A stretch of DNA of 64,000 bases from a virus. A model generated the notes under the pieces. It was not told where the DNA came from, ran no database searches, and was given only the letters and a program-made list of their open reading frames with translations. This document shows, one piece after another, positions 5,280-62,370 of this stretch (position 1 is its first letter; the number at the start of each line of letters is the position of its first letter). Both the position numbers and the translations under genes were made by a program. The stretch spans positions 38,000-101,999 of IMG/VR virus record IMGVR_UViG_3300047564_002353; one strand, given 5' to 3'.

Positions 5280-7322
5280 CTATCCTCCAAAAACTATTGT
5301 CATAGCGATACTTTGACCAATAGTCACATCGCCTTTTGATCCGGTATAACCTGTATCTCCACGCAACCCAGATGCATTAACTTCGACCCATTGTTGACTA
5401 TCACCGTCGTCTACATATACTGTTAAAATTCCTTCGTTGGTATCATACCAACGATCTCCAATCACAGGACTTACTGGCGGATTAGTTCCCCATGTAAACG
5501 AACTTTCTCCTTTACTTCCAGTATATCCTAGTGATCCTACATATCCAATGTCTCCCGTTCTTGAGAATGTCAAAAACATATCTGCATTATTGTCATAAGG
5601 AGTGATAGTACCTATAACATAAGAGATAGTTAAATTTACATAATTTGAATTATCTGTAACAGATCCAGTAATGGAATAAAATGTAAAGTCTTCTGGATTA
5701 GCTTGACTGGTAAACTTTACGTAGCCTCTGTTGTCTGTGGTGCTGTCTGCTACAGTTGTTAGATATGTATGTATATCATTTCCAAAATAGTCATATCTGT
5801 TAATAGCTGCTGAAGTTACACTAGACAAATTAGTATTGTTAAGAGAAAATTTACCTGAACCTGGATCTGAATTTACAGCGGTCGTCGTATTAAAATTATA
5901 ACCAAATGTGGCACCACCGAAGTTACCTGACAATCCTCGACTACCTGTGTATCCAATATCACCTTGTGATCCTGTATACCCAATGACTGTACTTGCACTA
6001 CCAGTATAGCCGATATCACCTTGACTGCCAGTATAGCCGATATCACCTTGACTGCCAGTAAATCCATAACTACCAGTAAATCCAGTAATACCTTGACTAC
6101 CTGTATAACCTTGAATACCCTGACTGCCTGTATAACCTTGAATACCCTGACTGCCTACGAATCCAGTAACTCCTTGAATACCCTGACTACCTGTATAACC
6201 TTGACTACCTGTGTAACCAATATCACCTTGACTGCCTGTATAACCAATGACCGTGCTTGCACTACCAGTGTAACCAATATCTCCTTGACTACCTGTATAG
6301 CCTTGACTACCTGTATAGCCTTGAGCTCCGTCGGCTCCAATAAATCCGTCGGCTCCAGCACTACCTGTATAACCCTGAATACCTTGACTGCCTGTATATC
6401 CGATATCACCTTGACTACCTGTATAACCAAATGATCCAGTATATCCAGTAATACCTTGACTACCTGTATATCCAATATCTCCTTGTGATCCGGTGTATCC
6501 TTGACTACCTGTATAACCTTGAATACCCTGACTACCTGTATATCCGATATCACCTTTATCACCAGTACGTGCAAAGGTTACTATGATATCTTCATTATTG
6601 CTAAATGAATTAGCACTTCCAGAAACATAACTTATAGGTACTGTGAAATATGTCGAGTTATTTGTACTATTGGCAGTGATAGCAAATATTGCAAAGTCAT
6701 CGCTATTAGCTTTATTGCTTATTCTAACGTGACCTTTGAGCTGACTAGTGCTTGCATCTATCGTTGTCAAATAAGCATCAAGGTTTACATTGTTATCATC
6801 TGTATCTTGAATGTAAAGAGTCGTTGCTGTAGTAATGTCACTTTGATTAACTTTTAATTTTCCAGTACCTGGTGCTGAATTATCTGTATCTGTAGAAAAA
6901 GTATAATCAAATGTCACTCCGCCAAAGTTGCCTTGCGGACCTTGACTACCTGTATATCCTTGACTACCAATATAACCTGTATCACCTTGACTACCTGTAT
7001 AACCAAATGATCCAGTATATCCAATATCACCTTGACTACCTGTATATCCAATATCACCTTGACTACCTGTATAACCAAATGATCCAGTATATCCAATATC
7101 ACCTTGTGATCCAGTATAACCTTTAAAATCGTTGGCGTAAGTAGTAATGTCGGTCCAGGTCCTAGAACCATCAGTATCGCCAATTAGGACACTGTTATTA
7201 ACTGGTGGTAAACCTAAATCGGGTTCAGCATTACTAACATCTAAATAGTCATAACGATCTGCATCAAGTGTTGCACCCGATTTCTTTTTTACTTTGCCAC
7301 TGACTAAACGACTTTTACTCAT
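5280..7322 (-). CDS. Collagen-like repeat tail protein, 680 aa
   Basis: N-terminus MSKSRLVSGKVKKKSG. Gly-X-Y tracts (GYT GSQ GDI type) alternate with two related beta-rich inserts (starting FGGVTFDYTFSTDT and FGGATFGYNFNTTT) and end in a 'SFTWGTNPPVSPVIGDRWYD' module typical of phage fibres. The repeats contain almost no proline. Start ATG overlaps the previous stop (TAATG). Inferred: trimeric tail fibre. Confidence 0.8.
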   Translation of the reverse strand: MSKSRLVSGKVKKKSGATLDADRYDYLDVSNAEPDLGLPPVNNSVLIGDTDGSRTWTDITTYANDFKGYTGSQGDIGYTGSFGYTGSQGDIGYTGSQGDIGYTGSFGYTGSQGDTGYIGSQGYTGSQGPQGNFGGVTFDYTFSTDTDNSAPGTGKLKVNQSDITTATTLYIQDTDDNNVNLDAYLTTIDASTSQLKGHVRISNKANSDDFAIFAITANSTNNSTYFTVPISYVSGSANSFSNNEDIIVTFARTGDKGDIGYTGSQGIQGYTGSQGYTGSQGDIGYTGSQGITGYTGSFGYTGSQGDIGYTGSQGIQGYTGSAGADGFIGADGAQGYTGSQGYTGSQGDIGYTGSASTVIGYTGSQGDIGYTGSQGYTGSQGIQGVTGFVGSQGIQGYTGSQGIQGYTGSQGITGFTGSYGFTGSQGDIGYTGSQGDIGYTGSASTVIGYTGSQGDIGYTGSRGLSGNFGGATFGYNFNTTTAVNSDPGSGKFSLNNTNLSSVTSAAINRYDYFGNDIHTYLTTVADSTTDNRGYVKFTSQANPEDFTFYSITGSVTDNSNYVNLTISYVIGTITPYDNNADMFLTFSRTGDIGYVGSLGYTGSKGESSFTWGTNPPVSPVIGDRWYDTNEGILTVYVDDGDSQQWVEVNASGLRGDTGYTGSKGDVTIGQSIAMTIVFGG
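5939..7124 (-). repeat. GYTGSQGDI collagen-like coding repeats
   Basis: Two Gly-X-Y tracts (about 6930-7124 and 5939-6554) made of near-identical 27-nt units. The repeats give long open frames on the other strand, which should not be annotated as genes. Confidence 0.85.
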
Positions 7323-7650
7323 TAGATGTTTCCAAGATACTTAAAATTAAATTTATAGTACTATTAGCACTGACTACAGCTTTAACACTAGATCCTTCTT
7401 CTATAACTAATTTACCTGTTGTTACTTCTGCTGCATCATTGGGAGGTATTTCAAAAGCATTTAACATAACATAATCTGTACTATTCTTTCTAAGAGTAAA
7501 AGTTATAGTAGCTGGACTATTTCCTATGTTACTAGCTTGAGCACCTAACACAATAGTAGTTAAACCTGTAGGTGTAGTATAAAGAGTCTGCTCTGATGTT
7601 GTTAATTCGTATGCTTTAGTTCTAAACGTGTTTAAAGGCAAAGTTGCCAT
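7315..7650 (-). CDS. Small beta-rich virion-associated protein
   Basis: 111 aa, MATLPLNTFRTKAYELTTSEQ. Same layout as the 119-aa protein at 4919-5278: 'TLYTTPTGLTTIVLGAQASNIG', 'IPPNDAAEVTTGKLVIEEGSSVKAV'. A Shine-Dalgarno GGAGATTAATTT precedes the ATG. Its stop overlaps the start of the 680-aa fibre gene. Structural accessory role inferred. Confidence 0.7.
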   Translation of the reverse strand: MATLPLNTFRTKAYELTTSEQTLYTTPTGLTTIVLGAQASNIGNSPATITFTLRKNSTDYVMLNAFEIPPNDAAEVTTGKLVIEEGSSVKAVVSANSTINLILSILETSNE

Positions 7651-7653
7651 AAA

Positions 7654-9906
7654 TTAATCTCCAATTGCCAATATGTAAGGTGTCATAACAGCGAACAAAC
7701 TCTTAGTGAATGTTCTACCAGTAATGGTTCCTGTGTTTCTATTAATCACTAAGTCGTTACCAATTCTAAAATCGCCTCGTTGATCTGTTCCTGTATAATA
7801 AATTTTTCCTTGGTTAACCTGCACTACTTGATTTTCTGTCACAGGTATACCGCCAAGGTATGGAAGAGCAGTATTTACATTAGTGCCGGCACCGACCCAT
7901 TCAAATGTTTGTCCAGCTGCTGTAATCAAACTAAATTGATGAAAAGTAACTGCTGCATTATCAGCTATTTCACTAGCAGTTTCTTCTAAAGTAATTGTAC
8001 TCGAATAGGCATTTTCAACAAGATTCGTAACTATATCAAACAAACCGTTAGCGATTCCAACTTCTGTATTAGTGGCTGCTGGATTACTAGTATTTTGACT
8101 TACGGATCCATTTAATGCAGAAACATTAGTATTAACTAAACAGGCCGCTGCTACAGTTTTTAGATATGCAAATGTATCTATAGTAGCCTGTTTTTCTCCG
8201 GCTGGAACTTGTAGCGTGCCTGTGCTGTAATATTCATCAGCTGCATCAGCAGTTTGACTATTACCTCCATAGAGTATATCATATGTTATTGAATCAATAA
8301 TATAACCAATATCTCTACGGCATTTAGTAGAGTCATAACTTAAAGCTGGATAGTTTGCAGTTATGTATGCAATACCTTCCTCGATAAAGAAACTACGGTT
8401 GGCTTGTAAAATTGTTTTAGCTCTAGAATTGTTAGTTGATACACCTGTTGGATTGTTAAATGAATATGCAGGTGCAACTCCTATACCATTGTTTATTATA
8501 TTAGTGATTGTATTGAAATTAGTCTGAACTCTAGTATACTCAGGACCTTGTGTGCTATCTGAACTTAGTATATCAAGTACTGCATCTCTAGCAAAATTTA
8601 TACCTGCTATGGTTTCTGTTTTTTGATTTGTTGTTACTTCACTGGCAGTTGCTCTATAATAACTTATACCTGCTTGTACAGATTTATAGTTGGTGTTTAG
8701 AACCATATCATCTACTACAGCATCGATAATTAGTCCAACATCTCTACTACATTTAAATTGATTAAAATCAAATGTAGGATAAGTTTCGTTCAAATAATCA
8801 ATTACATCAATTTGTATTTTACTTTTTGCATCTAGAACATTTTGTCTAGCATTTCTAGCATCTGCTGGTTCTGCTGCATAACTTGGAGAACTAATGGTAG
8901 TTGACCCGCTGGTAAAAGCAGTGCTAGTGGCCAATGTATAATAAGTTTCATCTCCTACAAATTTTACTGCATCTCCGACATTTGGTCTTGTGGTTAAATT
9001 ATCAACGACAAAGGTTCTACCTGAAGTAGTTCCATTAACTTTTCCTGAATATAGTGTAGAACTTACGCCGTCAGCTTTCAATCCATAATTACCAAAACTA
9101 CTGTTACTATTAGTTAAACTACAGAATCCACCGCTTTCACAAAGCACAGCAACATCACAACAAATAGTAAACACAGAAACTAATTGTGTGTTTCCTCTAT
9201 TTTTATGATGAATACCTATTCCACCTTGGTTATATTGTGTAAATGCATCAACTACCATACTACGTAAACCAGAACAGTGAGCACCATCAACACGCATACC
9301 AGTTCCTGTAGTAGTCATACTAGTGCAGTTTTGTACATAAGGACTGGTATGAATAACTCCTGCACTTCCGTTAGGGTTAAATGCTACCGCGGCAGACGGA
9401 CTTTCATGATCTTTAAAAGTCATATGTGCTAGATAAGCACCATTGTTTACATAAAATAAATCTTGTGTTTTATTCTGTGGACGAACGGTAACTGTTCTAA
9501 GATTGTCGCCAACAATAGCCACACCTTCAGGAACAGTTAAAGGATTAACTTCTGTGTAATCACCACTCTTAACAAATATCGTAGTGCCGTTAGTAGCAAC
9601 TTGTAGTGCAGATTTAATTGTTAGCTTACTGAGATTTAATGCAGTTCCATTATTTGAGTCATTGCCGCTTTTACTAACATAAAGAACATTCTGTACAGCA
9701 ATATTTCCTACACTACCTGCATAACCTGTACTACCTGAATATCCTCTTAGTCCACCGTAAGGCAATTCAGTCCAGGTATCATTACCGTTACCAATTTTAA
9801 ACAGATTAGTATCTGTTTCAATTCCCATTTCACCTTCGGCAAGAACCGGATCGACACTAGTCCACTCTGCGGCAAGTCCTCGTCTAAACTGTATTTGTAT
9901 GGCCAT
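7654..9906 (-). CDS. Mtd-N-like domain plus parallel beta-helix tail protein
   Basis: 750 aa. Residues 1-50 (MAIQIQFRRGLAAEW...LAEGEMGIETDTNLFKIGNG...W) match the N-terminal domain known from the major tropism determinant and many phage fibres, probably for virion attachment. A short GYSGS/GYAGS collagen-like hinge follows. Then 'VSKSGNDSNNGTALNLSKLTIKSAL...TVPEGVAIVGDN' begins a pectate-lyase-like right-handed beta-helix (about 75-290), typical of tailspikes or glycan binding. The C-terminal half is helical and unrecognised, with 'CRRDIGYIIDSITYD' motifs repeated twice. Confidence 0.8.
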   Translation of the reverse strand: MAIQIQFRRGLAAEWTSVDPVLAEGEMGIETDTNLFKIGNGNDTWTELPYGGLRGYSGSTGYAGSVGNIAVQNVLYVSKSGNDSNNGTALNLSKLTIKSALQVATNGTTIFVKSGDYTEVNPLTVPEGVAIVGDNLRTVTVRPQNKTQDLFYVNNGAYLAHMTFKDHESPSAAVAFNPNGSAGVIHTSPYVQNCTSMTTTGTGMRVDGAHCSGLRSMVVDAFTQYNQGGIGIHHKNRGNTQLVSVFTICCDVAVLCESGGFCSLTNSNSSFGNYGLKADGVSSTLYSGKVNGTTSGRTFVVDNLTTRPNVGDAVKFVGDETYYTLATSTAFTSGSTTISSPSYAAEPADARNARQNVLDAKSKIQIDVIDYLNETYPTFDFNQFKCSRDVGLIIDAVVDDMVLNTNYKSVQAGISYYRATASEVTTNQKTETIAGINFARDAVLDILSSDSTQGPEYTRVQTNFNTITNIINNGIGVAPAYSFNNPTGVSTNNSRAKTILQANRSFFIEEGIAYITANYPALSYDSTKCRRDIGYIIDSITYDILYGGNSQTADAADEYYSTGTLQVPAGEKQATIDTFAYLKTVAAACLVNTNVSALNGSVSQNTSNPAATNTEVGIANGLFDIVTNLVENAYSSTITLEETASEIADNAAVTFHQFSLITAAGQTFEWVGAGTNVNTALPYLGGIPVTENQVVQVNQGKIYYTGTDQRGDFRIGNDLVINRNTGTITGRTFTKSLFAVMTPYILAIGD

Positions 9907-9933
9907 TTTTTATAAAATCTGCTGTTATTTTAA

Positions 9934-9941
9934 TATTTATG
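9934..9941 (-). promoter_or_regulatory. T4-type late promoter CATAAATA
   Basis: Minus-strand CATAAATA about 27 nt upstream of the ATG at 9906. The short A/T-rich leader has no obvious Shine-Dalgarno sequence. Confidence 0.5.
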
Positions 9942-12900
9942 CGGTTACTCCGCCTGCATCTATGCTGCTTATTCCGCCGTAATTGCTGTCAGGAAAGCCG
10001 CCATCAAAATTTCCAAATGCTTCATTATTGCCTCCGCCGCCTCCGGTGCCATTAGTTCCTGCACTACCAGTATAACCCCTTGGCCCTTGAATTTGTCCTA
10101 CATCTATCCAGCCTGCTACAGTCCACACCCAAAGATGAAAATTATCTTGTGCAGTATATGCGTCACCATAACTACCTTGATACGAAGGATTTAGATTTGC
10201 ACTTGTAGCCACCGTTCCTAAGATAGTTACACTGGTGCCATCTGCTCCTCGGCTACCAGTATATCCAGTAAATCCACGTAATCCTATACCAGTTTCACCT
10301 TTACTACCAGTATATCCTAAAGCTGCATATTCTCCTGGTATACCTTGACTACCTGTATATCCGCCACTACCTGTAAATCCACGACTACCTGTAAATCCAT
10401 TTAATCCATCTAATCCACGACTACCTGTATAACCTTGACTGCCAGTATATCCTCTTGAACCAGAAAATCCTGTGCTACCTAGTTCACCTTGACTACCAGT
10501 AAATCCAATACTACCTTGACTACCAGTAAATCCAATACTACCTTGACTGCCTACATAGCCAACACTACCAGTAAATCCGACTGCACCTCTGCTTCCGGTA
10601 AAGCCTGTAGTACCTTGACTACCTGCATAACCTATATCGCCTCGACTGCCTACGAATCCAGTGTTTCCTTGACTACCTACGAATCCAGTGTTTCCTTGAC
10701 TACCAGAGTAACCAATAATTCCTTGTGGGCCTTCAGGTCCTCTAACTACCCCTACATCATTCCATTGTGACCCGGACCAAATATGCAAGTGGCCGTCATC
10801 GCTAGTAATATAACCGTCGCCTGTTGTTCCATTATATGTAATTGGTAGAGCAGAATATGTAGCTACTGATCCTACAATTGTAACACTAGTACCGTCTAAT
10901 CCTCGACTACCTGTATAACCTTGACTACCTGTATAACCTTGACTACCTACATAACCAATATCACCTTGTGATCCAATATATCCAACATCGCCTCGACTAC
11001 CAATAAATCCAGAAATTCCTTGACTGCCTGTATATCCGATATCTCCTTTACTTCCGGTAAATCCAATAATACCTTGACTACCAGTGTAACCTAAATCACC
11101 TCGACTACCAGTGTAACCAATATTACCTTGACTTCCAGTATAACCTTGACTACCAGTAAATCCAATACTACCTTGACTGCCTACAAATCCAATGTCGCCT
11201 TTGCTTCCAGTATAACCTTGACTACCACGACTACCTACAAATCCAATATCACCTTGACTACCAGTGTAACCTATATCTCCTTGACTACCAGTGTAACCAC
11301 GACTACCAGTAAATCCAATAATACCTTGACTGCCTGTATATCCGATAACACCTTGACTACCAGTAAATCCTATTGATCCAGAATACCCTTGTATACCTTG
11401 ACTGCCTGTATGGCCAATAGGTCCTTGTAATCCAGTTGGTCCTCTAACTAATCCTACATCATTCCACTGCGATCCAGACCATATATGTAAATGGCCGTCA
11501 TCGCTAGTAATATATCCATCACCTATTGATCCGTTATATGCAATTGGCAAGTTAGATTCTGTAGATACTGATCCTACAATCGTAACGCTAGTTCCGTCGT
11601 TACCTCTACTACCTGTATAGCCGATATTGCCTTGACTACCTGTATAACCATAGCTACCTGTATAACCTCTACTACCTGTATAGCCGATATTACCCTGACT
11701 ACCTGTATAGCCGATATTACCCTGACTACCTGTGTAACCAAATGATCCAGTAAATCCAATATTACCTTGACTACCTACGAATCCAGTAATCCCTTGACTA
11801 CCTGTGTATCCAATATCACCTTGACTACCTGTGTATCCAACCTCTCCCTTACTTCCAGTAAATCCAATAACACCTTGACTACCTGTATAGCCGATAACAC
11901 CTTGACTACCTATATAACCAGTGCTTCCAGTAAATCCAATATCGCCTCGGCTACCAGTAAATCCAGTAAATCCAACACTACCAGTAAATCCAGAAATACC
12001 TTGACTACCTGTATATCCAATATCGCCTTTACTGCCAGTAAATCCAATGTCTCCCTGACTACCAGAATAACCAATGACACCTCGGCTACCAGTAAATCCA
12101 GTAAATCCAACACTACCAGTAAATCCGATATCTCCTTTACTTCCGGTAAATCCAATAATACCTTGACTACCTGTATAACCGATGTCACCTTGACTTCCAG
12201 AATAACCAATATTACCTTGACTTCCAGAATAACCAATAGGTCCTTGCGGACCCTCAGGTCCTCTAACTAATCCTACATCATTCCACTGCGAACCTGACCA
12301 AATATGTAAGTGGCCGTCATTAGCAGTAATATATCCGTCACCTATTGAACCATTGTAAGAATTAGGAAGTTGATTTTGACTACTTACACTTCCAATTATA
12401 GTAACACTAGTTCCGTCTGAACCACGACTACCAGTAAATCCAACACTACCAGTATATCCAATAACACCTTGACTACCTACATAACCAATATCGCCTCGAC
12501 TACCTGTAAATCCAGTAATGCCTCGACTACCAGTATAACCGACTGATCCAATAAATCCTATGCTACCAGTATAACCAATATTACCTTGACTACCAGTATA
12601 GCCAATATCGCCTTGACTACCTATGTAACCAATATTACCTTGACTGCCAGTATAGCCGATATCTCCTTGACTGCCAGTATATCCGATATCTCCTTGACTA
12701 CCTACATAACCCGTATCGCCTTGACTACCTGTGTAACCAAATGATCCAGTAAATCCAATATTACCTTGACTACCTGTGTAACCGAATGATCCAGTAAATC
12801 CAATATTACCTTGACTACCTGTATAACCTTGACTACCTGTGTATCCTGTAGCACCAATACTACCAGTGTATCCAGTAGTGCCTCGACTACCAGTATAACC

Positions 12901-14454
12901 AATACTACCTGTGTAACCAATACTACCAGTATATCCAGTAATACCTTGACTACCTACAAATCCGATGTCTCCTTGAGGTCCAACGATTTGTCCTACATTA
13001 GTCCAACTACTACCAGTCCATACTTGTAGATTTTGTCCAACAATATAAGCATCACCTATGCCTGCGGAATTTTCTAATTGATTTAGATTATCTGCTTTTC
13101 CTAGTATTCTAACACTGGTACCATCTGCTCCTCGACTACCTACGAATCCAGCGATACCTTGACTACCAGTAAAGCCTATTCCTTGACTACCAGTATAACC
13201 AATAGCTACATTATAAAGTTGTTCGGATTGACCTCCAGCGTTTACTACCATTTCTAAGGCGCCAGTTGAACTGTTACGTCTTAAAATAATTTTAGAATTT
13301 TCTTCTCCAAACACAAACTCTGATGCTCTAACAGATACTAGGCCGCTGTTTGCATCTCTAAAAATAACGTTTCCATCATTGTCAACATTAATAGTAGTGC
13401 CATCGATATCAATAGTTTGATTGGTTACATATAAAGATTTAAATCTATAACTTGGGCTACCTAGATCATATAATCCATTTGCATCAGGTATCAGATCTCC
13501 TGGTATACTAGTAGTTCCTACTTGATCATACAGTAAAGCATTCTGAGTCGAGATAGTAAGTATTTTATAAGGGTCGCCTTCGGCGTCAGTAGTAATTGCT
13601 ATACCTTGCCCTGAACTAATTGTAAGAGTATCTAATCCGCTTGCTACTAAATCTTCTTGCCCTGCTACTTTTAGTGTTTTAAAAGTAGAGTTCATTGCTA
13701 TTTTAGCAGCACCTGATCCTAAATCTGAAACTGCAAAGCCGCTGTCATTATCAAACCTTAAGGTGTTAATATTAGTTAAGGTGTTAGAAATTTCATTGGC
13801 TGTGTTTATTTCACTTATCGTTAAACTAGAACCTACACCAGCTGAACCGGTGTATCCAGTAACTCCTGCACTACCTGTATAGCCAACTCCTTGACTACCA
13901 GTATAACCAGCACCTGCACTACCTGTATAGCCAATATCACCTTTATTACCCTGATCTCCTTTATCTCCCTTATTACCTTTTAAGTTTCCGGTAACATGAG
14001 TATTTTCAACACCATAGGATAAAGTTAAAGTTCCGTCTTCGTTACTTGAAATATCAGTTATACCAACACCAGATTCACCTTGACTGCCTGTGTAACCAAT
14101 ACTGCCTTGACTGCCTGTATAACCTATACCTGCACTACCAGTAAAGCCTCGTGGTCCTGATCCGTCACCTCCGCCGACAGTAAACCAATCAGGCGCTGAA
14201 CCATCATCATAATAAATGCTTAATTCGTTAGTATCAGGATTGTACCAAATGGTACCGTTGGAAGGTTCTTGAGGTTCAGTATTGCTAATTGTAGTAACAG
14301 AGTTACCGCCTATTGGAAGACCGCCAAGAGTTGCGCCGTCACTTAGACGTAGTTCTCCTGTTTCTACATTGAAGAATATGTTGCCTTCCTCGCCAACGAA
14401 CGATTCTATATCGTTTTTGACAAGTCCAGCTTTGATTTTACGGAAAAATGCCAC
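9937..14454 (-). CDS. Large collagen-like fibre with five globular modules, 1505 aa
   Basis: GTG start (MAFFRKIKAG). An Mtd-N-like domain (NIFFNVETGELRLSDGATL) is followed by Gly-X-Y repeats (GYTGSQG/GFTGSRG) interrupted by a beta-rich region near residues 210-420 and by five copies of a roughly 55-residue module (GTSVTIVGSV...GDGYITSDDGHLHIWSGSQWNDVG). The C-terminus is Gly/Asn-rich. The whole layout suggests a long trimeric fibre with regularly spaced lectin-like knobs. A hairpin covers the start codon and ribosome-binding site. Confidence 0.8.
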   Translation of the reverse strand: MAFFRKIKAGLVKNDIESFVGEEGNIFFNVETGELRLSDGATLGGLPIGGNSVTTISNTEPQEPSNGTIWYNPDTNELSIYYDDGSAPDWFTVGGGDGSGPRGFTGSAGIGYTGSQGSIGYTGSQGESGVGITDISSNEDGTLTLSYGVENTHVTGNLKGNKGDKGDQGNKGDIGYTGSAGAGYTGSQGVGYTGSAGVTGYTGSAGVGSSLTISEINTANEISNTLTNINTLRFDNDSGFAVSDLGSGAAKIAMNSTFKTLKVAGQEDLVASGLDTLTISSGQGIAITTDAEGDPYKILTISTQNALLYDQVGTTSIPGDLIPDANGLYDLGSPSYRFKSLYVTNQTIDIDGTTINVDNDGNVIFRDANSGLVSVRASEFVFGEENSKIILRRNSSTGALEMVVNAGGQSEQLYNVAIGYTGSQGIGFTGSQGIAGFVGSRGADGTSVRILGKADNLNQLENSAGIGDAYIVGQNLQVWTGSSWTNVGQIVGPQGDIGFVGSQGITGYTGSIGYTGSIGYTGSRGTTGYTGSIGATGYTGSQGYTGSQGNIGFTGSFGYTGSQGNIGFTGSFGYTGSQGDTGYVGSQGDIGYTGSQGDIGYTGSQGNIGYIGSQGDIGYTGSQGNIGYTGSIGFIGSVGYTGSRGITGFTGSRGDIGYVGSQGVIGYTGSVGFTGSRGSDGTSVTIIGSVSSQNQLPNSYNGSIGDGYITANDGHLHIWSGSQWNDVGLVRGPEGPQGPIGYSGSQGNIGYSGSQGDIGYTGSQGIIGFTGSKGDIGFTGSVGFTGFTGSRGVIGYSGSQGDIGFTGSKGDIGYTGSQGISGFTGSVGFTGFTGSRGDIGFTGSTGYIGSQGVIGYTGSQGVIGFTGSKGEVGYTGSQGDIGYTGSQGITGFVGSQGNIGFTGSFGYTGSQGNIGYTGSQGNIGYTGSRGYTGSYGYTGSQGNIGYTGSRGNDGTSVTIVGSVSTESNLPIAYNGSIGDGYITSDDGHLHIWSGSQWNDVGLVRGPTGLQGPIGHTGSQGIQGYSGSIGFTGSQGVIGYTGSQGIIGFTGSRGYTGSQGDIGYTGSQGDIGFVGSRGSQGYTGSKGDIGFVGSQGSIGFTGSQGYTGSQGNIGYTGSRGDLGYTGSQGIIGFTGSKGDIGYTGSQGISGFIGSRGDVGYIGSQGDIGYVGSQGYTGSQGYTGSRGLDGTSVTIVGSVATYSALPITYNGTTGDGYITSDDGHLHIWSGSQWNDVGVVRGPEGPQGIIGYSGSQGNTGFVGSQGNTGFVGSRGDIGYAGSQGTTGFTGSRGAVGFTGSVGYVGSQGSIGFTGSQGSIGFTGSQGELGSTGFSGSRGYTGSQGYTGSRGLDGLNGFTGSRGFTGSGGYTGSQGIPGEYAALGYTGSKGETGIGLRGFTGYTGSRGADGTSVTILGTVATSANLNPSYQGSYGDAYTAQDNFHLWVWTVAGWIDVGQIQGPRGYTGSAGTNGTGGGGGNNEAFGNFDGGFPDSNYGGISSIDAGGVTA
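10230..12990 (-). repeat. Tandem collagen-like coding repeats
   Basis: Dozens of 27-nt (GYT GSQ GDI) units separated by three almost identical globular modules. This is a hot spot for unequal recombination and assembly collapse. Repeat units differ at third positions, so they are not a recent single expansion. Confidence 0.85.
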
Positions 14455-32060: not shown

Positions 32061-32136
32061 GCACTGATAGCTCAATGGTTAGAGCTAGAGTCTCTAAAGC
32101 TTTAGGTTATGGGTTCGAGTCCCATTCAGTGCACCA
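32061..32136 (+). tRNA. tRNA-Sup(CTA), amber suppressor
   Basis: Complete 76-nt cloverleaf including encoded CCA: acceptor GCACTGA/TCAGTGC, D stem GCTC/GAGC, anticodon stem AGAGT/GCTTT (two G-U pairs), loop CTCTAAA, T stem ATGGG/CCCAT with TTCGAGT loop. With U33 conserved, positions 34-36 read CTA, which decodes UAG. Amino-acid identity cannot be read from the sequence (discriminator A73). Confidence 0.85.
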
Positions 32137-55749: not shown

Positions 55750-57168
55750 TTAGGGTTCAGTAGTGAGGTTGCTCAATAATTGTCTTAGTTTACTGCCTTC
55801 CACTTGTGTTTTGCTAGAAGGTACACTAGCTCCTTCAGCAGGGTCCGAATTCACAGTACTATTTCTTTGTAAACTATTTAAAATTTGTCTACTGCGCACA
55901 CTTTGATTATCATCTTCGGTTTGACCTTCTTCGCCTGGATCTGTAATTCTCAATGTATCAATATCAAAGTCTAGATCAATTTTCATACCTACACCAGAGC
56001 TACTTCTAGTTTTCATTAGTTGAATTTGATATTTGCCATGTTCACGCATAGCACGACTAGTAAAGATACCGAACACATTATCTGCTGTTTGGATTTTACT
56101 AAGTCCTCCTGAAATATGACTATGATCATATTCTACTTCTTCTACAGCGCCTCGATTTAACTGTGCTGCTGTAACCAGTACACATTGTTTTTCCATTGCT
56201 AAGTTACGTAGTTCTTCTGAAACATATTTGTCTTTAACGAATAAGTTTTCTGCTGATATTTTTCTACTTTGTGGCATCAGTAGATCGAGATAATCTACTA
56301 ACAGGATGTCTACTTTGCGTCCTAATTTAATTTCATATTCTTTAAGATAGCTTCTAATATCGTTAGCAGTCTTACCACTAGGCATATATTTTACTTGATA
56401 AGTTCCTGATTTTTTTCCAATCACTTTAACTTTCATTTCTACTTCGTCGATTTGTTTAAAGATATCTCTACTAGGAATATCAGTAATCATACTATCGATA
56501 CGCATACTAACCAGTTCTTCGCTAAGTTCCAATGTAAGATACACTACGTTCATACCTTGCAGAGCCCAATTAACTCCTAGATTAGCAAGGAAGAGACTTT
56601 TACCAGCACCTGATCCACCTGCGAAGATATTCAGTTCTCCTCGATTCATACCTCCGAACAATCGTTTATCTACAGTTTGCCAACCTGTACTCATTTGTCC
56701 GTTTTTATCTTTAATCCTCATTAATCTAGCTCTAGGGTCAGCGAAGTAGTCAGTACCCATGTCTTTAGTCAATCCAATTTGCACTGCTTGTTTAACTAAA
56801 TCTTCTACAGGGCCATACTCGCCTTTTTCTAGTAGATCGGCACTTTTCAAGATAGCTTGTTCAAGTCCTTTGTGTCTAATAAATGTTTCAAAATCTTGCA
56901 TAAGCCAATCATAATGTTCTTCTTTTAATTCTCCAGGAAATTTTAAATCAGATTTAGTAGCTGCATTAACAATTTCATAGGTAGGTAGTATACTGTGATC
57001 GACTACATAATCGTTAATAAATTTAGCTGTATTTTGTAATTTTCTATCAAATAGTTCGTGATTGTAAATGCTTTGACATCTTACAAAAGTTTCGGCATCG
57101 CTCAACATCATTTCCAAATAAAGATGTTGTATTTCATATCCATAATCTGCGTTTTGTCTTGTAGTCAT
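55750..57168 (-). CDS. 41: Replicative DNA helicase, gp41/DnaB-like
   Basis: 472 aa. RecA-type core: Walker A GGSGAGKS (near 185-192), Walker B 'DILLVDYLDLL', 'LVTAAQLNR', 'HISGGLSKIQTADNV' and the arginine-finger region 'LMKTRSSSG'. The N-terminal domain is helical as in T4 gp41. 5'-3' hexameric helicase of the phage replisome, partner of the primase at 58264. Its ATG overlaps the carbamoyltransferase stop. Confidence 0.92.
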   Translation of the reverse strand: MTTRQNADYGYEIQHLYLEMMLSDAETFVRCQSIYNHELFDRKLQNTAKFINDYVVDHSILPTYEIVNAATKSDLKFPGELKEEHYDWLMQDFETFIRHKGLEQAILKSADLLEKGEYGPVEDLVKQAVQIGLTKDMGTDYFADPRARLMRIKDKNGQMSTGWQTVDKRLFGGMNRGELNIFAGGSGAGKSLFLANLGVNWALQGMNVVYLTLELSEELVSMRIDSMITDIPSRDIFKQIDEVEMKVKVIGKKSGTYQVKYMPSGKTANDIRSYLKEYEIKLGRKVDILLVDYLDLLMPQSRKISAENLFVKDKYVSEELRNLAMEKQCVLVTAAQLNRGAVEEVEYDHSHISGGLSKIQTADNVFGIFTSRAMREHGKYQIQLMKTRSSSGVGMKIDLDFDIDTLRITDPGEEGQTEDDNQSVRSRQILNSLQRNSTVNSDPAEGASVPSSKTQVEGSKLRQLLSNLTTEP

Positions 57169-58142
57169 AATTTATTATATTTTATCTCTATATGTTTTGT
57201 GTCTTCGTCGGATTGATATTGCACATGATTTTTAGTATGGGCTAACACTGCTCCTATTGCACTGCTAGCATCTCCAGGCCAAGGTAAACTCCATATGCCT
57301 CGCCATTGATATCTTAGTTGTCGATTAAATTTACTATTATAAGCACATCCGCCCATATATACAAGATTTCTAAAACTGGTTAAGTTTCTTGCCTTAACCA
57401 TAATATAATCCATTTGTTCTTCAAATATTTTTTGTGTTGCAGCCGCGATATCATAAACATCTTGTTCTGAAAGATCATAATCAAAAGGCCAATTATAAAC
57501 ACCTTTATGTAGATTATATTTCAATACTGTAGGTTTTTTAAAGTAATTCAATATTTCATCGTAATACACATATGGGTTACCTTTGTCGCTTAATTGTTGG
57601 AACAGATATTCTTGTGATCCAGGTTGTAGTCCTACTAAATCTGTAAAGGCGCTGTAAAAGATTCCTAAACTGTTAGGATAGCTTTTACTCCAAAGTTTTT
57701 CTAAAGTTTTACCATGCCCTCTCCAGATGCTCATAGTTTCAAATTCCCCTATAGCATCTACCACTACGACTGCTGCTCTATTAAAACTGCTAGTATAATA
57801 TCCAGCAGCAGCATGACTATGATGATGTGCTGTATATACAATAGGGCAATCAATCTTAAACTTTTTCAAATATATACTAGGAATTTCTGAAATTTTAAAG
57901 CATTCTTTATATTGTCCAGCTCGTAGTTGTCTAAGTTTTTTCAAAAATGGTTTTTCATACCAATATACAGTTTTGGGTTCTCCATACAAAGTTTTAGCAT
58001 GATATATTATTTCTTCATTAAGATAATGATCTCCTCGAATATGAGTGAAATCACTGCTACGTCTATGCCATACAGGAACACCATCTCTGAATACACAGAT
58101 ACTGGCATCATGATTTAGTGCATTAATTCCCCAGACTATCAT
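57165..58142 (-). CDS. Carbamoyltransferase, NodU/TobZ-like N-terminal domain
   Basis: 325 aa. ASKHA-fold signatures: 'GINALNHDASICVFRDG', 'YTAHHHSHAAAGYYTSSF', 'VVVVDAIGEFETMSIW', 'LVYMGGCAYNSK'. Much shorter than NodU (about 570 aa), because the C-terminal YrdC-linked domain is absent. Such proteins transfer carbamoyl groups to hydroxyls of sugars. In phages this could modify a nucleotide or glycan. It sits between primase and helicase, suggesting a role linked to DNA. Confidence 0.85.
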   Translation of the reverse strand: MIVWGINALNHDASICVFRDGVPVWHRRSSDFTHIRGDHYLNEEIIYHAKTLYGEPKTVYWYEKPFLKKLRQLRAGQYKECFKISEIPSIYLKKFKIDCPIVYTAHHHSHAAAGYYTSSFNRAAVVVVDAIGEFETMSIWRGHGKTLEKLWSKSYPNSLGIFYSAFTDLVGLQPGSQEYLFQQLSDKGNPYVYYDEILNYFKKPTVLKYNLHKGVYNWPFDYDLSEQDVYDIAAATQKIFEEQMDYIMVKARNLTSFRNLVYMGGCAYNSKFNRQLRYQWRGIWSLPWPGDASSAIGAVLAHTKNHVQYQSDEDTKHIEIKYNKL

Positions 58143-58263: not shown

Positions 58264-59232
58264 TTATACCTCGAACCATTTCTTTGCTAACAATTTTATT
58301 TTTAATGCAGAGTGTTCTTTAGCATTGATTATACTGTATAAGGTAGCTAATCTACCATATTTTAATAGTGCTTCGTTAGCATCCTTAATGTTTCGATCCC
58401 AGTTAGGAAAACTAACACTCCATTCGTTTTCAATAGCTTGCTCAATTAATTTTTTTCCAGCTTGGTCTCTGTCCGGTAATACTATAACTTCTCTTTTAAG
58501 TTGATTAATTAAATTTTTTTGATGTGAATTTATATCACTACCTAATAAAGCTACACCATCTACGCTAATAGCATCAAGTGGGCCTTCACACACTATAACA
58601 TATTTACGATTATCTTTTTGTCTATCAAAATTAAAGACATATCCAGGTTGTTGTTCTGAGATGTATTTTGGTTTACCATCTCTTAGTAATCGAGCTGTAA
58701 ATCCAACAATTTTATTATTAAAATAAAATGGAATAATTAATCTATTAGGATATGAAGAGCTCCAATACCATTCATAATCGTCTAGGTATAATCCACGATT
58801 AGCAATATATTCCATAGCCAATAACATTTCTTCATGAGTTTCTGTACTTCCTATTCTAACACTATCGGGAGGCAAGAATTTATCTACGAATTTTGGTAAT
58901 AATTCAAATCGACTTTTGTAGTCTGAGTTCTCTTTTAAGCGTAGAGCTTCTAAACTACATTTAGAAATCAAGTCGTCGGGTATGTTTAACCAACGCATCA
59001 ATTTCCGAAATTTTGCAGTTACAATTCTACCTGATTGCCAACTAGTTTTAAATCCGCAATTAAAGCAATGATAGCTGACACTGTCATTGATCATCATACC
59101 TCCTCGTTGCCTAGTATCAGCAGATGTACCATTATGATGACAACATACTGCATTAAAACTTATCCAACCACTAGGTGTTTTTTTTCTTTTCGGAGGCAAG
59201 AATGAATTAATTGTATCTATGATTAGACTCAT
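58264..59232 (-). CDS. 61: DNA primase, gp61/DnaG-like
   Basis: 322 aa. N-terminal zinc motif (VCCHHNGTSADTRQRGG ... YHCFNCGF), then a TOPRIM region 'VIVCEGPLDAISVDG' and 'VIVLPDRDQAGKKLIEQA'. Size and order match T4 gp61-type primases. Synthesises RNA primers with the helicase at 55750. Confidence 0.9.
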   Translation of the reverse strand: MSLIIDTINSFLPPKRKKTPSGWISFNAVCCHHNGTSADTRQRGGMMINDSVSYHCFNCGFKTSWQSGRIVTAKFRKLMRWLNIPDDLISKCSLEALRLKENSDYKSRFELLPKFVDKFLPPDSVRIGSTETHEEMLLAMEYIANRGLYLDDYEWYWSSSYPNRLIIPFYFNNKIVGFTARLLRDGKPKYISEQQPGYVFNFDRQKDNRKYVIVCEGPLDAISVDGVALLGSDINSHQKNLINQLKREVIVLPDRDQAGKKLIEQAIENEWSVSFPNWDRNIKDANEALLKYGRLATLYSIINAKEHSALKIKLLAKKWFEV

Positions 59233-60062: not shown

Positions 60063-60070
60063 TATTTATG
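60063..60070 (-). promoter_or_regulatory. T4-type late promoter CATAAATA
   Basis: Overlaps the plus-strand ATG at 60068; predicted +1 about 3 nt before the minus ATG at 60054. Confidence 0.5.
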
Positions 60071-60445
60071 GCGAAATTAAGAGAAAACATACAAGAACAA
60101 TTACCCTTTATTTCAGTGCTTCATTACGGTGAAAACGAGTATGTAGGTATCATTATCAATCAAGATCAATATGTAACTAGTTTTTTTGACCTTGCGATGT
60201 TAAGGACTCCAGAGCACAAAGCTGGATTATTAGAAATAGGCGAGATATGGTGGTGGGAATCAAACAGACAAGTTCCTATTAATATCTTTCTCAGGAAAGA
60301 AATTGAACCTTATAGATACGCCATTAAAACTTTCAATAGTAAAGATGTAAGGGTAATGTTAGGACCAGTGGTAAACTTATTAAATCTAACAATTAAACGA
60401 GTTAAACGTAAATCTGTTCAATTAGTCAGAAGTCCAAAGCGTTAA
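60068..60445 (+). CDS. Conserved T4-like phage protein (125 aa)
   Basis: MAKLRENIQEQLPFISVLHYGENEYVGIIINQDQYVTSFFDLAML...'LGEIWWWESNRQVPINIFL'-type block; basic C-terminus. Recalled from other T4-like marine phages, role unknown. Divergent and overlapping transcription with the 59242 gene. Confidence 0.7.
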   Translation: MAKLRENIQEQLPFISVLHYGENEYVGIIINQDQYVTSFFDLAMLRTPEHKAGLLEIGEIWWWESNRQVPINIFLRKEIEPYRYAIKTFNSKDVRVMLGPVVNLLNLTIKRVKRKSVQLVRSPKR

Positions 60446-61020
60446 TAATGCTCGTATGCTACACTTTCGCAAATTAAGTTCATTTGTACTATTATCGCTT
60501 GTGCATACGCAATTGCATGTGCCTTTTTAAAATAATAGTCGTCATTCTCCGGTTTTTTCCAAACCTCCATCATTACTGTTTCCCAAGATTTGCCTATCAG
60601 ATATCGTTTCGCTGGACGAATTATTGCTAATACTGCGGCTAATTGTTCCAAGGTCTTGGGTTTCATGGTTCTTAATATATCGCCATGGCCGTTTATATGG
60701 AACAACAGATCCGTGAATTCGTCTTGCTCTAATAGATCCCATAATGGTTCGATCTCCATTAATTTGATTAAATGTTCTTCATTTTTAACATCTTTATATA
60801 TGCTTACATTTAAGAAATCAATTTTAAAATATCCTTCATCATCTGCTGTTTTATAGTCTATATTAGACAAATTTAAAATAGGATTTGAAGGAATTGATTG
60901 AACATATATACCAGTATTATGAGTAACTAGTTCGTTGTTTTGCAAGCGACTAGCCTTAACATATTGAATATGTTTTAATATTTGTTCCCTATCTGCAAAA
61001 TCGATATCGATATCAGGCAT
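60442..61020 (-). CDS. Miniature DnaE-like (Pol III alpha palm) protein
   Basis: 192 aa. The very start reads MPDIDIDF, matching the PDxDxDF catalytic motif of bacterial C-family polymerases. 'GYFKIDFLNVS' matches the third-Asp motif (KFDFLGL), 'LFHINGHGDILRTMKPKTLEQLAAVLAIIRPAKR' the following palm segment, and 'FKKAHAIAYAQAII' the FNKSHSAAYA motif. PHP, fingers and C-terminal domains are absent. Either a reduced polymerase or a catalytically repurposed remnant. Confidence 0.75.
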   Translation of the reverse strand: MPDIDIDFADREQILKHIQYVKASRLQNNELVTHNTGIYVQSIPSNPILNLSNIDYKTADDEGYFKIDFLNVSIYKDVKNEEHLIKLMEIEPLWDLLEQDEFTDLLFHINGHGDILRTMKPKTLEQLAAVLAIIRPAKRYLIGKSWETVMMEVWKKPENDDYYFKKAHAIAYAQAIIVQMNLICESVAYEHY

Positions 61021-61205
61021 TATTGTATAACTTCCGTTTCAAATAATAATAAGGGTAGATTTTTTGATAGAAACTCTGCATAATCAGTAGCTTCATCAAG
61101 GTTTTCAAAACCTTCTAATTTCACATAGATCGAGTCATCTTTTTCATTTACTAGAACCTGCATGGATAGTTCTGTGTTGGTGCTTCCAGAAACAACATAA
61201 GTCAT
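61020..61205 (-). CDS. Small unknown protein (61 aa)
   Basis: MTYVVSGSTNTELSMQVLVN; 'IYVKLEGFENLDEATDYAEFL'. Small alpha/beta. 4-nt or shorter overlaps with both neighbours suggest a replication operon. Confidence 0.65.
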   Translation of the reverse strand: MTYVVSGSTNTELSMQVLVNEKDDSIYVKLEGFENLDEATDYAEFLSKNLPLLLFETEVIQ

Positions 61206-61894
61206 AGTCCAACCTCCTTAATTATTTTTTTTACTAATTCCATATCTCGCTTTGATTCTTTAAACTTTTTAGACCAAAATACAGGGTCTATAATATTACT
61301 TATGGCAGATAGCTGAGTATCGTCTAGTTGATCTAATAGTTTTTTACCTGAAACAGAGTTTAATATTATCCAGGGACTTACTTTACCATCTTTAATATCA
61401 AACATTGCTCGATTTGTACTTACATAACTGAAATAGTGATCCCATTTACTATTGTTATTTTCAGCCCATTTTTCCATATGTTTTATAGACCGCTCTAGAG
61501 CAGTTTCTACAGATTCTGTTTTTATTAGTTCTAAAACATATTTTTCATACAATGCATCTTTACACCAGTGATCGATTTTAACACCACTTTTTACAGTCCA
61601 TTCTATGTATTTTTCTGGATATAGTGGATTTATATTAGATACAAAACTGCCGAATTTAACAAATGCATTATAATATGGGCTCTTAGAAAATTCTTCGTAT
61701 GTCTTTGGTTCTGAGGATTTTTGTACTAATGAATAAAATTTGTCAAAGGTTTGAAATCCAATCATCACATGTTTTTCTTTACGTGCAAGATGTCTTCTTT
61801 TTTGTTCGCACGTATGTACTATCAAAGTTTTTTCTTTTGTAAACTTTGATTTACAATGTACACAAATAAATTCTTGCGATAGCTCAGAAATCAT
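61202..61894 (-). CDS. Zinc-finger protein (230 aa)
   Basis: N-terminal C2HC finger 'FICVHCKSKFTKEKTLIVHTCEQKRRHLARKEKHV', then a helical body. I recall this block from T4-like cyano- and pelagiphages without a confirmed function. Its place beside the DnaE-like gene suggests DNA metabolism. Confidence 0.7.
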   Translation of the reverse strand: MISELSQEFICVHCKSKFTKEKTLIVHTCEQKRRHLARKEKHVMIGFQTFDKFYSLVQKSSEPKTYEEFSKSPYYNAFVKFGSFVSNINPLYPEKYIEWTVKSGVKIDHWCKDALYEKYVLELIKTESVETALERSIKHMEKWAENNNSKWDHYFSYVSTNRAMFDIKDGKVSPWIILNSVSGKKLLDQLDDTQLSAISNIIDPVFWSKKFKESKRDMELVKKIIKEVGL

Positions 61895-62370
61895 TTAAAA
61901 AAGTCTTTAATTTGTTTATCTGTATATCCAAACAATTTTGCTTGTTCTATACATTCTTTTTCATTAGTTAATTCAACAAGTAATTCAAGTTCATCGATTT
62001 TTTTATTCGGATATATCTCTGAAAGGAATTTAAAAATTTTATTATTATTATTTTTCTTTCTCTTAAACCCTATCCATTCGTGATAGAAGATATTTTTAGA
62101 TTCATGACTACACATACAAAGTAATTGCCAAAGTAACTTAGGATGTTTTTGTAAAATGTTCCAATGTTTATTGAAGTATTCGTTAACTGTTAAAATGTAA
62201 TGTTCTTGAATATCTCTATTGTTAGTTTTAACATTACTGATATATCTATTTAAAATATAGAATTCACTTTTTAACGCCTTTCGTTGATCGTCATTAATAT
62301 CATCCCATAATGATTTTACATTTAAATCGACTGCCGCCAATTTTTCTTTTAGTTCAATTTTTTCACTCAT
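61891..62370 (-). CDS. Unknown helical protein (159 aa)
   Basis: MSEKIELKEKLAAVDLNVKSLWDDINDDQRKALKSEFYILNRYISNVK; 'HWNILQKHPKLLWQLLCMCSHESKNIFYHEWIGF'. A conserved phage block by memory; a clamp-loader-like role has not been established. Coupled to both neighbours. Confidence 0.7.
   Translation of the reverse strand: MSEKIELKEKLAAVDLNVKSLWDDINDDQRKALKSEFYILNRYISNVKTNNRDIQEHYILTVNEYFNKHWNILQKHPKLLWQLLCMCSHESKNIFYHEWIGFKRKKNNNNKIFKFLSEIYPNKKIDELELLVELTNEKECIEQAKLFGYTDKQIKDFFK

What the first reader, a model, noticed from the sequence alone, without database searches (positions are those of the whole stretch)
60442..61020. 192-residue DnaE-like protein with all palm motifs
PDIDIDF at residues 2-8, KIDFL at 66-70 and FKKAHAIAYA at 164-173 align in order with bacterial Pol III alpha, but the protein is about one sixth its size and a T4-like phage would normally use a B-family polymerase. 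It may be a minimal nucleotidyltransferase, a processivity decoy, or a subunit that hijacks the host clamp.
Basis: partly seen in the sequence, partly recalled or inferred. Interest (0 to 1): 0.75.

Follow-up and report, generated by a model that had tools for sequence, protein, structure and literature searches.

The report
Half of a split phage DNA polymerase
The small gene is a real, widespread phage gene encoding the second half of a stripped-down bacterial-type DNA polymerase whose first half is made by a separate, distant gene; the split enzyme was described from genome comparison in 2021, and I found no report of a test of its activity.

Summary
In detail: window 61020..60442 (minus strand) encodes 192 aa with PDIDIDF, KIDFL and FKKAHAIAYA in Pol III alpha (C-family) order. 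It belongs to PHROG 11778, with at least 550 relatives found in IMG/VR. D3, D5, D7, K66 and D68 (E. coli D401/D403/D405, K553, D555) are invariant in 134 sequences. An AlphaFold model (pLDDT 92) aligns over most of its length only with Pol III alpha/PolC.

It is not a complete palm. It begins exactly at the DnaE junction 'RFLNPER|MPDIDIDF', so the GS (dNTP-binding) motif is missing, as are the thumb and a ~90-residue finger segment with 'LRRAMGKK'. In all 11 phage genomes examined and 6 of 8 long metagenomic records, a separate gene encodes the missing piece, ending '...GRGSSVxSYxL...EFLK-stop'. All 17 also encode a B-family polymerase. No fused copy was seen.

Best reading: catalytic C-terminal subunit of a two-protein minimal C-family nucleotidyltransferase/polymerase. 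Iyer et al. 2021 already reported this split enzyme in jumbo phages. Added here: residue-level conservation, exact cut and deletions, breadth, and occurrence in 141-kb phages. Activity is untested. The host-clamp hijack idea finds no support.

The parts
60442..61020 (-). C-terminal subunit of a split minimal Pol III alpha (192 aa): DxDxD metal-binding strand (residues 3-7), KxD strand (66-68), RPAK (135-138), FKKxHAxxY helix (164-172)
   Evidence: PHROG 11778 E=5.7e-66; five active-site residues invariant in 134 sequences; AF2 pLDDT 91.8; VIA-align Z 9.5 to Pol III alpha 3e0d over 188 residues, next unrelated fold Z 3.4
61000..61014 (-). codons of residues 3-7 (D-I-D-I-D), equivalent to E. coli DnaE D401, D403, D405
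   Evidence: D3, D5, D7 invariant 134/134; position in DnaE alignment
60817..60825 (-). codons of residues 66-68 (K-I-D), equivalent to E. coli DnaE K553, D555
   Evidence: K66 and D68 invariant 134/134; hhalign places them on the DnaE KxDxL column
60068..60445 (+). convergent 125-aa gene overlapping the end of the DnaE-like gene; phrog_11637, unknown function; constant neighbour
   Evidence: Present on the opposite strand in 47 of 47 relatives' loci; same arrangement in all eleven phage genomes looked at
58264..59232 (-). DNA primase (T4 gp61-like, Toprim), constant downstream neighbour
   Evidence: phrog_47 E=2e-42; 47 of 47 loci
55750..57168 (-). DnaB-like replicative helicase (T4 gp41-like), constant downstream neighbour
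   Evidence: phrog_19 E=3.5e-67, PF03796; 47 of 47 loci
61202..61894 (-). 230-aa protein of phrog_11058, unknown function; constant upstream neighbour
   Evidence: E=2.3e-63; 47 of 47 loci
61891..62370 (-). 159-aa protein, phrog_11758, unknown function; constant upstream neighbour
   Evidence: E=1.8e-13; 46 of 47 loci

Best explanation
The protein is the C-terminal catalytic subunit of a minimal, two-polypeptide C-family (Pol III alpha-type) nucleotidyltransferase, most likely a DNA polymerase. SHOWN: it carries the DxDxD strand, the KxD strand, the palm strand with H34/G37, the RPAK segment and the FKKxHAxxY finger helix of Pol III alpha; a second gene carries the preceding helices and the GRGS loop and stops exactly where this one begins; both are retained together. 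INFERRED: the two proteins bind each other so that the GS loop of one and the three aspartates of the other form one two-metal active site; the enzyme then adds nucleotides to primer or recombination-intermediate ends beside the B-family replicase, in the uvsX/uvsW/primase/helicase environment in which its gene lies. Lacking a thumb, clamp-binding region and the finger segment that in DnaE holds the triphosphate, it should be distributive by itself, relying on partners (perhaps the phage clamp loader/clamp, next to which the other half is encoded) or acting as a short-patch enzyme. Identity as half of a split Pol III core: about 0.95. Reassembly into a catalytically active enzyme: about 0.6.
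For: Homology and collinearity. Invariant D3/D5/D7/K66/D68 in 134 sequences at 35-81% identity to the window protein; four residues named beforehand all falling among 23 invariant columns of 192 has p about 1.6e-4. Invariant G-x-GRGS in 85 N-half sequences. Exact complementarity: on PF07733 the N-half covers positions 11-98 and the C-half starts at 86-101; N-half profile ends at E. coli residue 393, C-half structural alignment starts at 400. Co-occurrence in 11 of 11 phage genomes and 6 of 8 records of 180 kb or more, always as separate genes. No fusion in 157 C-half or 92 N-half loci. B-family polymerase in all 17. Conserved replication neighbourhood; N-half gene near the clamp loader.
Against: No partner gene was found in the window's own record, but that is a 102-kb fragment. 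The finger arginines of LRRAMGKK, invariant or nearly so in nine DnaE proteins, and the arginines of FERFLNPER are absent, so a normal dNTP-binding pocket is not assured and a catalytically dead scaffold cannot be excluded. Physical contact between the halves was not tested: no complex could be modelled, and the N-half structure job failed before the tool was withdrawn.
Confidence: 0.65

Rival explanations
1. Catalytically dead remnant: the two halves still assemble, but serve as a structural or regulatory subunit (for example of the B-family polymerase, primase-helicase or recombination apparatus) without nucleotidyl transfer.
For: Thumb and the LRRAMGKK finger segment are deleted; the phages already have a B-family polymerase.
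Against: All three metal-ligand aspartates, the KxD lysine and the GRGS loop are strictly invariant across distant phages, which is hard to explain without catalysis.
Confidence: 0.25
2. The C-half acts alone, or with a partner other than the GS half, as a distinct nucleotidyltransferase or DNA-binding protein.
For: AF2 gives a confident fold for the C-half on its own (pLDDT 91.8, pTM 0.78); the genes are far apart in most genomes.
Against: The GS half co-occurs with it in every phage genome examined and ends precisely at the missing junction.
Confidence: 0.07
3. Decoy or adaptor that captures the host sliding clamp or clamp loader by mimicking Pol III alpha.
For: Resemblance to host DnaE.
Against: The regions of DnaE that contact clamp, tau and epsilon (C-terminal, OB and PHP parts; general knowledge) are outside the 400-784 span matched. 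A clamp-motif pattern occurs in only 18 of 134 relatives and not in the window protein. A decoy would not need invariant catalytic aspartates.
Confidence: 0.02
4. Pseudogene, frameshift fragment or assembly artefact of a full-length dnaE.
For: One sixth of the size of DnaE.
Against: Intact in at least 550 IMG/VR loci and 63 phage records, with ATG start, constant length and constant neighbours; the other half lies tens to hundreds of kilobases away.
Confidence: 0.01

Closest known systems
[quoted passage not shown] 2021, Viruses 13:63, PMC7824862)
   Same: Same gene family: they report a phage-specific minimal Pol III alpha split into an N-terminal NTP-binding and a C-terminal Mg2+/template-binding protein, encoded by distant genes, accompanying a family B polymerase. 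Atu_ph07, which they place in that group, carries the homologue of this gene.
   Different: Nothing in kind. Here: an additional uncultured member, residue-level conservation, the exact cut and the two internal deletions, and members in two 141-kb phages, below the 200-kb jumbo limit.
Bacterial DNA polymerase III alpha (DnaE) and PolC
   Same: Collinear motifs, same catalytic triad, same fold over 184-188 residues.
   Different: No GS motif in this chain, no PHP, thumb, OB, clamp-binding or tau-binding parts; finger segment with LRRAMGKK deleted.
Full-length phage DnaE (e.g. Streptomyces phage Yasdnil gp54; phrog_405)
   Same: C-family homologue in a phage; weak direct similarity.
   Different: Those are single chains of about 1,140 aa with all motifs.
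CBB_328 of Pectobacterium phage CBB (Buttimer et al. 2017, PMC5259590) and gp316 of Atu_ph07 (Attai et al. 2018, PMC6102473)
   Same: Early reports of the other (N-terminal) half as a truncated Pol III alpha.
   Different: In the passages found, neither paper reports the C-terminal half studied here.

Membership tests
Split minimal Pol III alpha, C-terminal subunit (Iyer et al. 2021; PHROG 11778) | Full-length match to the family and separate small ORF starting at PDIDID | tested here: met
   PHROG 11778, residues 3-186, E=5.7e-66; stop codon within 41 codons upstream in all 157 relatives
Split minimal Pol III alpha, C-terminal subunit (Iyer et al. 2021; PHROG 11778) | Catalytic aspartates retained | tested here: met
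   D3, D5, D7, D68 and K66 invariant, 134/134
Split minimal Pol III alpha, C-terminal subunit (Iyer et al. 2021; PHROG 11778) | Partner N-terminal (GS-motif) gene elsewhere in the same genome | tested here: inconclusive
   Present in 11/11 phage genomes and 6/8 long records, including the 364-kb contig of the nearest relative (81% identity); not found in the window's own 102-kb fragment
Split minimal Pol III alpha, C-terminal subunit (Iyer et al. 2021; PHROG 11778) | Accompanied by a family B DNA polymerase | tested here: inconclusive
   Met in all 17 records with both halves; own record is a fragment without a match
C-family DNA polymerase (DnaE/PolC) as a single protein | Three catalytic aspartates in palm | tested here: met
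C-family DNA polymerase (DnaE/PolC) as a single protein | GS nucleotidyltransferase motif upstream of PDxDxD in the same chain | tested here: not met
   Protein starts at MPDIDIDF; the motif is in a separate protein in relatives
C-family DNA polymerase (DnaE/PolC) as a single protein | Thumb domain between the second and third palm motifs | tested here: not met
   D5 to H34 is 29 residues versus 108 in E. coli DnaE (403 to 511)
C-family DNA polymerase (DnaE/PolC) as a single protein | Finger segment with LRRAMGKK | tested here: not met
   R135 to F164 is 29 residues versus 117 in E. coli (639 to 756); segment absent
C-family DNA polymerase (DnaE/PolC) as a single protein | PHP, clamp-binding and OB regions | tested here: not met
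   192 aa spans only E. coli 400-784
C-family DNA polymerase (DnaE/PolC) as a single protein | Template-directed DNA synthesis | not testable with these tools
   Needs biochemistry

The most novel reading that the evidence does not exclude
The two halves form an obligate heterodimer that is the smallest C-family catalytic core known (about 350 residues in all), active without thumb and without the usual triphosphate-binding finger, and dedicated to a task other than bulk replication (primer-end or recombination-intermediate extension). It would be a living model of the ancestral Pol III core.
Probability: 0.3. Interest if true: 0.75.

Novelty: new member of a known kind. Interest (0 to 1): 0.45.

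Why it matters
A polymerase whose active site is assembled from two separately encoded proteins, the nucleotide-binding loop on one and the metal-binding aspartates on the other, would be very unusual, and here it has been retained beside a B-family replicase in a large phage clade. Because both halves are small and available from many phages, the questions of what the smallest working C-family polymerase is, and why a phage with a B-family polymerase keeps a second one, become directly testable. The idea itself was published in 2021; what I add is evidence that the active-site residues are under strict constraint in both halves.

Tried and rejected
(1) Looked for a full-length A- or C-family polymerase in the same phages: no PF00476 match over cut-off, and only one small ORF with PF07733 over cut-off per genome. 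(2) Looked for fused copies of the two halves: none in 157 C-half and 92 N-half loci. (3) Looked for cellular homologues with the C-half profile in 84,980 bacterial and archaeal genomes: two MAG contigs binned as archaeal (probably stray phage), otherwise mostly actinobacterial contigs matched only at residues 30-137, consistent with ordinary DnaE; this is an independent check of the homology. (4) Clamp-binding motif scan: none in the window protein. (5) A scan with the Vibrio phage copy found no IMG/VR relatives. (6) Structure of the N-half: job failed, then the tool was withdrawn; plain Foldseek search unavailable, so only the VIA-align second look was used. (7) Searched the open-access library for later experimental work on the split enzyme: only Iyer et al. 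2021 appeared; subscription journals are not covered. (8) The 61-aa gene just upstream (61020-61205) was considered as the missing piece and rejected: no family match, found in only 26 of 47 relatives' loci, and the true GS half is elsewhere.

Full report
OBSERVATION. The gene lies on the minus strand, 61020..60442, with an ATG start and 192 codons. The protein is a full-length member of PHROG 11778, 'DNA polymerase' (residues 3-186, E=5.7e-66), and weakly matches full-length C-family polymerases in PHROG (3e-6), NCBIfam polc (4e-5) and the Pfam finger domain (0.008, below cut-off). Its relatives number at least 550 loci in IMG/VR and 63 phage records covering at least 80% of it, among them Atu_ph07, Phosso, PA5oct/Paride, SCTP-2, RaK2, 121Q/PBECO4, GAP32, CBB and XaC1.

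HOMOLOGY TO POL III ALPHA. A profile of 24 relatives aligns with M. tuberculosis DnaE in four collinear pieces: MPDIDIDF (413), KMDFL (about 575), QLDG...RPGP (about 640-664) and FNKSHA (about 776) (whole-sequence E=0.0009). hhalign against nine full DnaE sequences fetched here (E. coli, plasmid DnaE1, error-prone DnaE2-like and one phage DnaE) gives E=2e-7 and also pairs H34/G37 with the conserved palm 'HAAG'. The reverse direction works too: a scan of 84,980 prokaryote genomes with the phage profile returned, apart from two probably stray phage contigs, mostly actinobacterial contigs matched at residues 30-137, as expected of ordinary DnaE. The AlphaFold2 model from 93 aligned sequences has mean pLDDT 91.8 and pTM 0.78. 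The structural second look lists only Pol III alpha and PolC entries down to Z 6.0 (best 9.5 over 188 residues at 3.8 A, 3e0d; 9.3 over 185 at 3.4 A, PolC 3f2b), then falls to 3.4 for unrelated folds. In E. coli numbering the model spans 400 to 784.

WHAT IS MISSING. DnaE reads ...GRGS..GSLVAY..GIT..DP....LLFERFLNPERVS|MPDFDIDF... The phage protein starts at the bar, so the GS motif that binds the incoming nucleotide in this fold (general knowledge of Pol beta-like nucleotidyltransferases) is not in it. Two further pieces are deleted: between the DxD strand and the HxxG strand there are 29 residues instead of 108 (the thumb), and between RP and F-K-K-x-H 29 instead of 117 (finger segment with the strongly conserved LRRAMGKK). 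There is no PHP, clamp-binding or OB part.

THE OTHER HALF. Searching nine phage genomes with Pfam PF07733 found exactly one ORF over the cut-off in each, matching only positions about 16-98 of the model. These ORFs encode small proteins (about 160-180 residues in most) ending '...GVGRGSSVASYVLFLIGIHRVNSITYELDFDEFLN-stop' or close variants. That is the DnaE sequence up to the junction at which the other gene begins. On the same Pfam model the weak matches of the C-half begin at positions 86-101. Against the PDB the N-half profile aligns with E. coli DnaE 320-393 (E=0.004), while the C-half model starts at 400. All 92 N-half loci stop 35-41 residues after the GxGRGS motif, and all 157 C-half loci have an in-frame stop within 41 codons upstream of PDIDID, so no fused form was seen.

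CO-OCCURRENCE. Both halves occur, as separate genes, in all eleven phage genomes examined (nine of 287-490 kb, one of them labelled partial, plus two complete 141-kb Alishewanella phages) and in six of eight IMG/VR records of 180 kb or more; the other two may be fragments. The nearest relative of the window (81% identity, 364-kb contig) has its two halves about 180 kb apart. All 17 records also encode a B-family polymerase, and none of the nine tested encodes an A-family enzyme over cut-off. The window's own record is a 102-kb fragment in which neither the N-half nor a B-family polymerase was found, so for this phage the pairing is inferred from relatives.

CONSTRAINT. In 134 distinct C-halves D3, D5, D7, K66 and D68 are invariant, as are H34, R135, P136, K138, F164, H168 and Y172. 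In 85 distinct N-halves the G-x-GRGS residues, R92 and E96 are invariant. The four residues named in advance (D401, D403, K553, D555 of E. coli) all fall among 23 invariant columns of 192, p about 1.6e-4. Even the divergent Alishewanella copies keep DVDID, KVD, RPAK, FKKSHAIAYA and GRGS. This argues for a working metal-dependent active site, but does not prove it.

NEIGHBOURHOOD. In the annotated phage genomes the gene sits between a recombination/helicase block (uvsX, uvsY or endonuclease, exonuclease, uvsW in those where it is annotated) and the primase and DnaB-like helicase, followed by a convergent gene of about 120 residues that usually overlaps or nearly abuts its end. In 47 of 47 fully sampled IMG/VR loci the convergent gene, a 282-aa neighbour, the primase, the helicase and a 230-aa upstream gene are all present. 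The N-half gene lies a few genes from the clamp-loader gene in RaK2, Paride and the nearest relative's contig.

MECHANISM. The best-supported reading is that the two proteins come together to rebuild one C-family active site: GRGS loop from one, three aspartates and the finger helix from the other. Shown: complementarity, co-retention, constraint, fold of the C-half. Inferred: physical assembly, catalysis, and a role in extending primers or recombination intermediates beside the B-family replicase. With no thumb, no clamp-binding part and no LRRAMGKK segment it should be non-processive alone. The main rival is an assembled but catalytically dead accessory subunit.

WHAT IS ALREADY KNOWN. Iyer et al. 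2021 (PMC7824862) described exactly this for 'group 2.2' jumbo phages: a phage-specific minimal Pol III alpha split into an N-terminal NTP-binding and a C-terminal Mg2+- and template-binding protein encoded by distant genes, accompanying a family B polymerase, which they suggest reconstitutes an enzyme and may resemble the ancestral state. The N-half alone had been noticed as a truncated Pol III alpha in phage CBB (PMC5259590) and as a Pol III alpha subunit in Atu_ph07 (PMC6102473). I found no later experimental work in the open-access library. The finding is therefore a new member of a known kind. Additions made here are the exact cut, the two internal deletions, the invariance of both halves of the active site over a large environmental sample, the absence of fusions, the constant neighbourhood, and members in phages below the jumbo size limit.

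VERDICT. Observation confirmed; interpretation partly right (C-family, beside a B-family polymerase) and partly wrong (not all palm motifs, not a self-sufficient enzyme, no sign of clamp hijack). Interest 0.45: striking and testable, but already reported.

Noticed in passing
window 32061-32136 (+): ARAGORN calls a tRNA with anticodon CTA (labelled tRNA-Pyl), i.e. a possible amber-suppressor tRNA; whether genes of this phage use TAG as sense was not checked.
   Followed up: no
window 57165-58142 (-): A Nol-like carbamoyltransferase gene lies between primase and DnaB-like helicase; 36 of 47 related loci hold a match to it.
   Followed up: partly
window 5280-14454 (-): Long proteins (680 and 1505 aa) made largely of GYTGSQG-type collagen-like repeats, probably tail-fibre or surface proteins.
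   Followed up: no
L115:1501-1983 (N-half), matches to phrog_7513 and phrog_13169: Two other phage protein families of about 460 residues (one of unknown function) carry a GS-half-like region near their C-terminal end, so further C-family polymerases split at the same place may exist.
   Followed up: no
L099 region of phage Paride; L347-L350 of the Alishewanella phages: The B-family polymerase itself is spread over two open frames in these phages (825+379 and 578+322 residues), perhaps split genes or insertions.
   Followed up: no
L307, L308: Two genome-collection contigs binned as archaea (a Natrialbaceae MAG and a Pacearchaeota MAG) carry this phage gene at 53-55% identity; probably mis-binned phage contigs.
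   Followed up: no
window 61205-62370 (-): Two upstream genes of unknown function (phrog_11058 and phrog_11758) are as constant as the replication genes around them (46-47 of 47 loci) and may be unrecognised replication proteins.
   Followed up: partly
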